Positions 15,241 through 16,673 of a stretch of DNA of 64,000 nucleotides are shown in pieces; positions within the stretch are counted from its first letter, which is position 1; every line of letters begins with the position of its first letter. Under the pieces are notes generated by a model. It made no database searches and had not been told where the DNA came from. It worked only from the letters and a program-made list of their open reading frames with translations. The translations under genes and the position numbers were made by a program. The stretch covers positions 1 through 64,000 of the forward strand of contig CATOOV010000008.1 in assembly GCA_951801955.1 (NCBI GenBank). The letters are read 5' to 3'. The stretch comes from an uncultured Lachnospiraceae bacterium (GTDB lineage: Bacteria; Bacillota; Clostridia; Lachnospirales; Lachnospiraceae).

Positions 15241-15385
15241 TGCTTTATCTTTTGGTTTTCTTCGTTTTCTATGATACTTTCTAAATGCACTGTAAATTTC
15301 CAATTCTGCTTTATCTTTTGGCTTTCTACAATGTTTCTGTATACACTGTAAATATTCGATTACGTTTTATTCTTTCGTTTTCTTA
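15241..15385. repeat. About 2.5 degenerate tandem repeats (~60 bp) resembling the 3' end of glf
   Basis: tgctttatcttttgg(t/c)tttct...(a)cactgtaaat repeated at ~15241, ~15308 and ~15365; tttctacaatgtttctgtatacactgtaaat resembles tttctacaatacttcctgtacacattgcaat at the glf end. Confidence 0.6.
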
Positions 15386-15390
15386 TTTTG

Positions 15391-15563
15391 TAACTATTCA
15401 GAACCCCAAGCCACAGACATGCCAGCAAAGCTGTCATTCGCCTCTAACGAGGCTTCTGTCTGTGGCTGAGGGGATGATCACCTCCCTGGAAATAGCAATT
15501 CATCCCTTTTCAAATAAATTTGAACGTTCTGAATTGCTATTTTCAGGGGGTTCTGAATCGTTA
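15391..15563. other. Compact ~173-bp multi-stem palindromic element (structured RNA or MITE candidate)
   Basis: Outer arms TAACTATTCAGAACCCC / GGGGTTCTGAATCGTTA; inner arms AGCCACAGACA/TGTCTGTGGCT and CCCTGGAAATAGCAATTCA/TGAATTGCTATTTTCAGGG, plus small hairpins. Confidence 0.75.
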
Positions 15564-15572
15564 CCTTATTTT

Positions 15573-16673
15573 CTACAATACTTCCTGTACACATTGCAAT
15601 GCCGCTTCTATGGTATCATCCATATCGTAATACTTATATTGTCCCAATCTGCCGCCAAAAATTACATTTCCTTCTTTTTGGGCAAGCTCCTGGTACTTCC
15701 CATAAAGCGCCGCATTTTTTTCATCATTCATAGGATAGTAAGGTTCATCCCCCTTTGTCCATGTCTGAGGATATTCCCGCGTGATAACAGTTTTCGGCTG
15801 TTTGCCAAATTCAAAATGCTTGTGTTCAATAATCCGGGTATATGGCACTTCATATTCGGTATAATTTACCACTGCATTTCCCTGATAATTCTCCTGTTCC
15901 AGCAATTCCGTCTCAAACCGCAGCGAACGGTATTCCAGTTCCCCAAAACAATAATCAAAATATTCATCAATCATTCCTGTATAGACAATCCTGTCCGCAG
16001 CTTCTTTATATTCTTCCCGCTTTTCCAAAAAATTTTCATTTAATTTTACTTTCGTACCTTTCAGCATATTTTCTACCATCTTGGTATAACCGCCTAATGG
16101 AATTCCCTGGTAATTATCGTCAAAATAGTTATTGTCATAGGTAAAACGCACAGGAAGGCGTTTGATAATAAATGCTGGGAGATCCGTGGCACGTTTTCCC
16201 CATTGCTTCTCTGTATATCCTTTTACCAGTTTGGTATATACGTCTGGTCCAACCAAATTAATTGCCTGTTCTTCCAAATTTCTTGGATTCTCCACAGAAT
16301 ATTCCTGTTTCTGCTGCTGAATCTTTGCCTGTGCCTCCTGGGGTGTCACAACCCCCCACAATTTATTGAATGTATTCATATTAAACGGCATATTATAGAT
16401 CTCACCTTTATAATTCGCCACAGGGGAGTTAGTGTAACGGTTAAAAGCTGTAAATTGGTTGATATAATCCCATACTTCCTTATTAGAGGTATGGAAAATA
16501 TGAGCGCCATATACATGTACCTGGATTCCTTCCATCTCTTTGGTGTATATATTTCCAGCGATATGGTTCCGTTTGTCTATCACAAGGCACTTTTTTCCCG
16601 CCTTTTTTGCTTCTTGGGCAAAAACTGCGCCAAACAGCCCTGCGCCAACAATTAAATAATCATATGTCTTCAT
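15573..16673 (-). CDS. glf: UDP-galactopyranose mutase
   Basis: YDYLIVGAGLFGAVFAQEAKKAGKKCLVIDKRNHIAGNIYTKEMEGIQVHVYGAHIFHTSN. Confidence 0.97.
   Translation of the reverse strand: MKTYDYLIVGAGLFGAVFAQEAKKAGKKCLVIDKRNHIAGNIYTKEMEGIQVHVYGAHIFHTSNKEVWDYINQFTAFNRYTNSPVANYKGEIYNMPFNMNTFNKLWGVVTPQEAQAKIQQQKQEYSVENPRNLEEQAINLVGPDVYTKLVKGYTEKQWGKRATDLPAFIIKRLPVRFTYDNNYFDDNYQGIPLGGYTKMVENMLKGTKVKLNENFLEKREEYKEAADRIVYTGMIDEYFDYCFGELEYRSLRFETELLEQENYQGNAVVNYTEYEVPYTRIIEHKHFEFGKQPKTVITREYPQTWTKGDEPYYPMNDEKNAALYGKYQELAQKEGNVIFGGRLGQYKYYDMDDTIEAALQCVQEVL

What the first reader, a model, noticed from the sequence alone, without database searches (positions are those of the whole stretch)
15391..15563. Compact five-stem palindromic element between glf and apt
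Outer arms TAACTATTCAGAACCCC/GGGGTTCTGAATCGTTA (one mismatch) enclose two domains. One is AGCCACAGACA/TGTCTGTGGCT, itself holding CAGCaaaGCTG and GCCTCtaacGAGGC. The other is CCCTGGAAATAGCAATTCA/TGAATTGCTATTTTCAGGG, capped by TTCAAATaaATTTGAA. The only imperfect pair in the last stem is a G-U if transcribed on the + strand. It is too elaborate for a simple terminator; a structured ncRNA or a non-autonomous transposable element with RNA-like folding both fit.
Basis: seen in the sequence. Interest (0 to 1): 0.6.

Follow-up and report, generated by a model that had tools for sequence, protein, structure and literature searches.

The report
IS66-mobilised folded mini-transposon (MITE)
The palindromic element after glf is one of many copies of a 175-bp non-coding mini-transposon, probably moved by the enzyme of a larger IS66-type insertion sequence with the same ends; this is a known kind of element, in a family I did not find described.

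Summary
The palindromes are real and far beyond chance (fold z about -10 on both strands). The element is a transposable one. Its exact ends are GTAACTATTC...GAATCGTTAC (15390-15564, 175 bp), flanked by a perfect 8-bp target duplication CTTATTTT, the right copy abutting the glf stop codon. About a dozen copies lie in the same genome and up to 52 matches in a sister species; 12 of 46 full-length copies have perfect 8-bp duplications and none lies inside a gene. At this locus 21 relatives have apt and glf side by side without it. The 18-bp terminal repeat is identical to that of 1.8-2.0 kb insertion sequences of the ISBst12 group of IS66 (single-ORF transposase, 8-bp duplications), found intact in other bacteria and in at least ten copies in a sister species, but not in the window's own assembly. 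So it is a MITE, very likely mobilised in trans by such a transposase. Its folding is evolutionarily maintained (28 of 62 pairs with two-sided changes; 13 in shuffles), but G-U and A-C mismatches are equally common, so there is no sign of selection on an RNA of one strand.

The parts
15382..15389 (.). left copy of the 8-bp target-site duplication CTTATTTT
   Evidence: sequence; identical to 15565-15572
15390..15407 (.). left terminal inverted repeat GTAACTATTCAGAACCCC
   Evidence: I2; 18/18 identical to an end of eight ISBst12-type IS66 elements
15409..15467 (.). interior domain A: stem AGCCACAGACA/TGTCTGTGGCT holding CAGCaaaGCTG (15423-15433) and GCCTCtaacGAGGC (15440-15453)
   Evidence: helix 4 has two-sided changes in 4 of 5 pairs
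15484..15548 (.). interior domain B: long stem CCCTGGAAATAGCAATTCA/TGAATTGCTATTTTCAGGG with inner cap hairpin at 15509-15524
   Evidence: 12 of 17 stem pairs have two-sided changes across 43 copies
15547..15564 (.). right terminal inverted repeat GGGGTTCTGAATCGTTAC
15565..15572 (.). right copy of the 8-bp target-site duplication CTTATTTT, directly next to the glf stop codon
   Evidence: sequence
15390..15564 (.). complete 175-bp MITE (orientation arbitrary)
15573..16673 (-). glf, UDP-galactopyranose mutase (neighbour; its stop codon abuts the insertion)
   Evidence: TIGR00031, 446 bits
14685..15209 (-). apt, adenine phosphoribosyltransferase (neighbour on the other side)
   Evidence: TIGR01090, 226 bits

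Best explanation
[quoted passage not shown] Shown: multicopy state, precise ends, 8-bp duplications, absence at the orthologous locus in relatives, identity of the terminal repeats with those of autonomous IS66 elements, and maintained base pairing. Inferred: that this transposase does the moving, and that the palindromic interior was kept while the source copies were active, at the DNA level or by arm-to-arm repair, because mismatches are strand-symmetric; host effects are incidental.
For: Copies: 21 matches in about 13 places in the own genome; 44 and 52 matches in two sister species, 17 of 61 genomes with a match, all of one genus. Ends and target duplication: of 46 distinct copies, 12 have 8/8 and 30 at least 6/8 identical flanks; swapped flanks average 3.1 and none of 5,000 reaches 8. 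Locus without it: 21 relatives have apt and glf 11-129 bp apart. Parent: elements of 1,796-1,988 bp with these terminal repeats, perfect 8-bp duplications in 6 of 8, and IS66 transposases; in sister species G027 ten right and nine left ends at contig ends, eight pairs sharing identical 8-bp flanks. Similarity between MITE and IS is confined to the last 16-20 bp. The active ISBst12-group element ISDge4 has ends GTGACTACTCAGCA / GTAACTGCTCAGCA and an 8-bp repeat (PMC12898284). No copy lies inside an ORF.
Against: No IS66 transposase of this type is found in the own assembly (88.8% complete) or in G004, which has 44 matches; the mover must have been lost, or be unassembled. No transposition was observed. 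Flanks at the glf-apt locus are too diverged between species to show a base-exact empty site.
Confidence: 0.9

Rival explanations
1. A structured non-coding RNA or cis-acting RNA that the host uses, spread as a repeat and kept for its RNA fold (for example an mRNA stability or RNase III processing element).
For: Strong fold on both strands; base pairing maintained by two-sided changes; the copy lies between two genes read in the same direction and would be in any glf read-through transcript. bcr elements of Bacillus cereus are often part of mRNAs (PMC3446304).
Against: No Rfam match above threshold. Single-side mismatches in stems are G-U 128 and A-C 118, and 15/16 on internal and 67/64 on terminal branches, so no strand is favoured; on terminal branches this is a weak test because copies lie in both orientations. 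Neighbouring genes: 16 divergent, 15 antisense tandem, 7 sense tandem, 4 convergent, 4 unknown. At glf-apt the relatives lack the element.
Confidence: 0.12
2. A bidirectional transcription terminator that evolved in place after glf.
For: Located directly after the glf stop codon; one weak terminator-like hairpin inside domain A.
Against: No clear T-run follows the outer stem on either strand; terminal repeats, 8-bp duplication and multicopy state are not explained; 16 of 46 copies lie between divergent genes.
Confidence: 0.03
3. A MITE, but mobilised by a transposase of another family that also makes 8-bp duplications.
For: No mover was found in the own genome; several insertion-sequence families duplicate 8 bp (own knowledge).
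Against: All eight full elements over 1.7 kb examined with these ends code for IS66 transposases, and IS66 transposase matches occur at about 22 loci that carry the terminal repeat. IS66 elements with TnpB in the genus do not carry these ends.
Confidence: 0.06

Closest known systems
ISBst12 group of the IS66 family (for example ISDge4 of Deinococcus geothermalis, PMC12898284)
   Same: Terminal repeats of the type GTAACT..TCAG.A, 8-bp duplications; the autonomous elements found here have one transposase ORF (PF03050, NF033517).
   Different: The window element has no transposase ORF and is 175 bp; it shares only the terminal repeats with the insertion sequences.
QMITE2 of Coxiella burnetii (PMC5896051; review PMC10969869)
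   Same: MITE of 150-190 bp with 7-11 bp duplications, intergenic, very stable multi-stem fold.
   Different: Different sequence and terminal repeats; carries a GTAG REP; no IS66 link reported in the passages read.
bcr1-bcr3 repeats of the Bacillus cereus group (PMC3446304)
   Same: MITE-like intergenic repeats; about half of all bcr repeats were transcribed in one strain.
   Different: Other bacteria and other sequence; expression of the present element is untested.

Membership tests
MITE (bacterial miniature inverted-repeat transposable element) | short, non-coding, inverted terminal repeats | tested here: met
   175 bp, 18-bp repeats 17/18 complementary; no transposase ORF
MITE (bacterial miniature inverted-repeat transposable element) | many dispersed copies with target-site duplications | tested here: met
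MITE (bacterial miniature inverted-repeat transposable element) | ends shared with an autonomous element that can act in trans | tested here: met
   18-bp identity with eight IS66 elements; action in trans itself not testable here
MITE (bacterial miniature inverted-repeat transposable element) | AT-rich intergenic targets | tested here: met
   83% A+T in duplications, 0 of 46 copies inside an ORF
MITE (bacterial miniature inverted-repeat transposable element) | observed mobility | not testable with these tools
   needs a transposition assay
IS66 family, ISBst12 group (the proposed mover) | single DDE transposase ORF of the IS66 type, without TnpA/TnpB | tested here: met
   L276 ORF of 491 aa and L288 ORF of 507 aa: PF03050, NF033517 above cut-off; one main ORF in elements of 1.8-2.0 kb
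IS66 family, ISBst12 group (the proposed mover) | 8-bp direct repeats and ends of the GTAACT type | tested here: met
   six elements with perfect 8-bp repeats, eight matched end pairs in G027; compare ISDge4
IS66 family, ISBst12 group (the proposed mover) | present in the window's own genome (needed for present-day mobility, not for the origin) | tested here: not met
   no match in G000; assembly is 88.8% complete
Known structured RNA family (Rfam) | match at the curated threshold | tested here: not met
   only MIR447 at 20.8 bits against a threshold of 200
Intrinsic terminator | G+C-rich stem followed by a T-run at the end of the element | tested here: not met
   only a 5-bp hairpin inside domain A scores

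The most novel reading that the evidence does not exclude
IS66-type MITEs of Lachnospiraceae form a class whose fully palindromic, modular interior (unrelated in sequence between families) is kept by strand-symmetric selection because the folded DNA itself helps transposition or survival of the element.
Probability: 0.2. Interest if true: 0.6.

Novelty: new member of a known kind. Interest (0 to 1): 0.36.

Why it matters
It explains a conspicuous repeat in gut Lachnospiraceae and links it to a specific mover. The same 18-bp end marks short folded elements and IS66 insertion sequences in 18 of 334 sampled genera of the family, so it is a ready key for annotating them, and it sets up a test of why bacterial MITEs are so strongly folded: here pairing is maintained without a strand preference.

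Tried and rejected
IS66 elements with TnpB in the genus as parents: none carries the ends. Long elements around unpaired ends in the genus: none found in 20 regions of about 4-8.5 kb. Phage and plasmid collections: no match to the element. Base-exact empty site: searched among held loci; the only candidate was one diverged copy without a clear duplication, matching its own neighbourhood, not counted. Papers naming an IS66-derived MITE or a MITE of Lachnospiraceae: none found in the searches made, which cover open-licence papers only.

Full report
What is there. Folded alone the segment reaches -82.7 kcal/mol on + and -81.6 on -, against shuffle means near -40 (z -9.6 and -10.0). The neighbours are glf (UDP-galactopyranose mutase, TIGR00031) and apt (adenine phosphoribosyltransferase, TIGR01090), both on the minus strand.

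It is a mobile element. The segment has about 13 places in the same genome, seven of them at 93-100% identity over the full length. Two sister species have 44 and 52 matches; 17 of 61 genomes (the own one included) have a match and all 17 belong to the same genus. Among 46 distinct full-length copies, 12 have a perfect 8-bp repeat and 30 at least 6 of 8; flanks swapped among copies match at 3.1 of 8 on average and never at 8 in 5,000 draws. Several insertions are shared with the same flanks by G004 and G027, so copies are inherited after insertion. At the glf-apt locus, 21 relatives have the two genes 11-129 bp apart on one contig, too close for the element (four intervals read directly). None of 46 copies lies inside an ORF (a simple ORF-based gene call).

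The mover. The 17-base end pattern occurs in 19 of 397 genomes of the family (18 of 334 genera), while its reversed control occurs in none. Many of these ends pair at 134-197 bp with 8-bp repeats. One viral contig (L213) and contigs of several bacteria hold 1.8-2.0 kb elements with the same ends. Six of eight such elements have perfect 8-bp repeats. Their ORFs are IS66 transposases: PF03050 in L213, L276 and L288, NF033517 in L276 and L288 at 267 and 223 bits against a cut-off of 180, and strong tblastn matches to these in the others. They have one main ORF and no TnpB, as in the ISBst12 group. PMC12898284 describes an active member of that group, ISDge4, with ends GTGACTACTCAGCA / GTAACTGCTCAGCA and an 8-bp direct repeat. 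In G027 the assembly breaks at ten right and nine left ends of one such element, and eight left/right pairs have identical 8-bp flanks, which shows at least eight insertions young enough to keep perfect duplications, in a species that also has 52 matches to the MITE. The MITE shares only the terminal 16-20 bp with these insertion sequences. IS66 elements with TnpB in the genus do not have these ends. The own assembly (88.8% complete) holds no such transposase. The inference is mobilisation in trans, with the mover lost or unassembled here.

The fold. On an alignment of 43 copies, the reference structure has 91.8% of cells paired; 28 of 62 pairs have two-sided changes (shuffles 13.0 +/- 2.4) and 99 cells (shuffles 34.1 +/- 4.2); partners slid by 1-3 columns pair in 36-43% of cells. 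Domain B carries most of this, with 12 of 17 pairs. A second permutation gives 108 two-sided cells against 22 +/- 4. The structure came from one of the sequences, and the alignment carries relatedness, so these numbers are supportive rather than exact probabilities. Stem mismatches are as often A-C as G-U (118 and 128; similar on inner and outer branches). A structure kept for an RNA of fixed strand would be expected to tolerate G-U rather than A-C on that strand. I therefore read the pairing as kept at the DNA level, or by repair between arms, in the source copies; this is inference. Diverged copies lose much of their fold (several at -35 to -60 kcal/mol), which fits decay after insertion.

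A wider class. 77 short elements with these ends and at least 7/8 duplications fall into 11 sequence clusters. In every cluster the interior without the ends folds better than dinucleotide shuffles (z -2.9 to -19.5), while the 155-166 bp ends of the insertion sequence in G027 fold at only -36 to -39 kcal/mol. Strong folding is described as typical of prokaryotic MITEs (PMC10969869), so this is not in itself new.

Names. 

Verdict. It is a new family of a known kind of element, with an unusually clear link to its likely mover. The remaining uncertainty is whether the transposase really acts on it and what, if anything, the folded interior does.

Noticed in passing
window 15278-15383: Two imperfect 50-nt T-rich direct repeats (74% identical, spacing 56) lie upstream of apt, next to the insertion.
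   Followed up: no
L032, L076, L078, L079 (genomes G012 and G002): Longer versions (248-258 bp) carry an extra block of about 80-90 bp with its own hairpins within domain A; three of the four have perfect 8-bp duplications: the interior is modular.
   Followed up: partly
L034:1243-1607: A 365-bp version with a further large nested hairpin module inside domain B.
   Followed up: no
L309:7509-7958: A 450-bp element in a Magnetococcales metagenome assembly with the same terminal repeats, a perfect 8-bp duplication CGCACTTT and an almost fully palindromic interior (z -19.5). Another Magnetococcales assembly has an IS66 transposase next to this end (L334).
   Followed up: partly
L266, L282, L307, L334: The same 18-bp end next to IS66 transposases in assemblies labelled Victivallales, Lentisphaerae, Chloroflexi and Magnetococcales, so the end type is not confined to Lachnospiraceae. 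Mis-binned contigs are not excluded.
   Followed up: partly
L213:645-2440: An IS66 element with a frameshifted transposase sits in a contig classed as viral (IMGVR_UViG_3300006217_000018), with a perfect 8-bp duplication.
   Followed up: no
L187, L193, L196, L197, L203, L211: MITEs of 142-197 bp in other genera share a hairpin cap of the type CATGCAAGCATG, although most of their sequence differs.
   Followed up: no
L300, L331, L381: Eubacterium plexicaudatum ASF492 holds three copies of the autonomous element with perfect 8-bp duplications, but the longest transposase reading frames (388, 426 and 392 aa) are shorter than that of L276 and appear interrupted.
   Followed up: no
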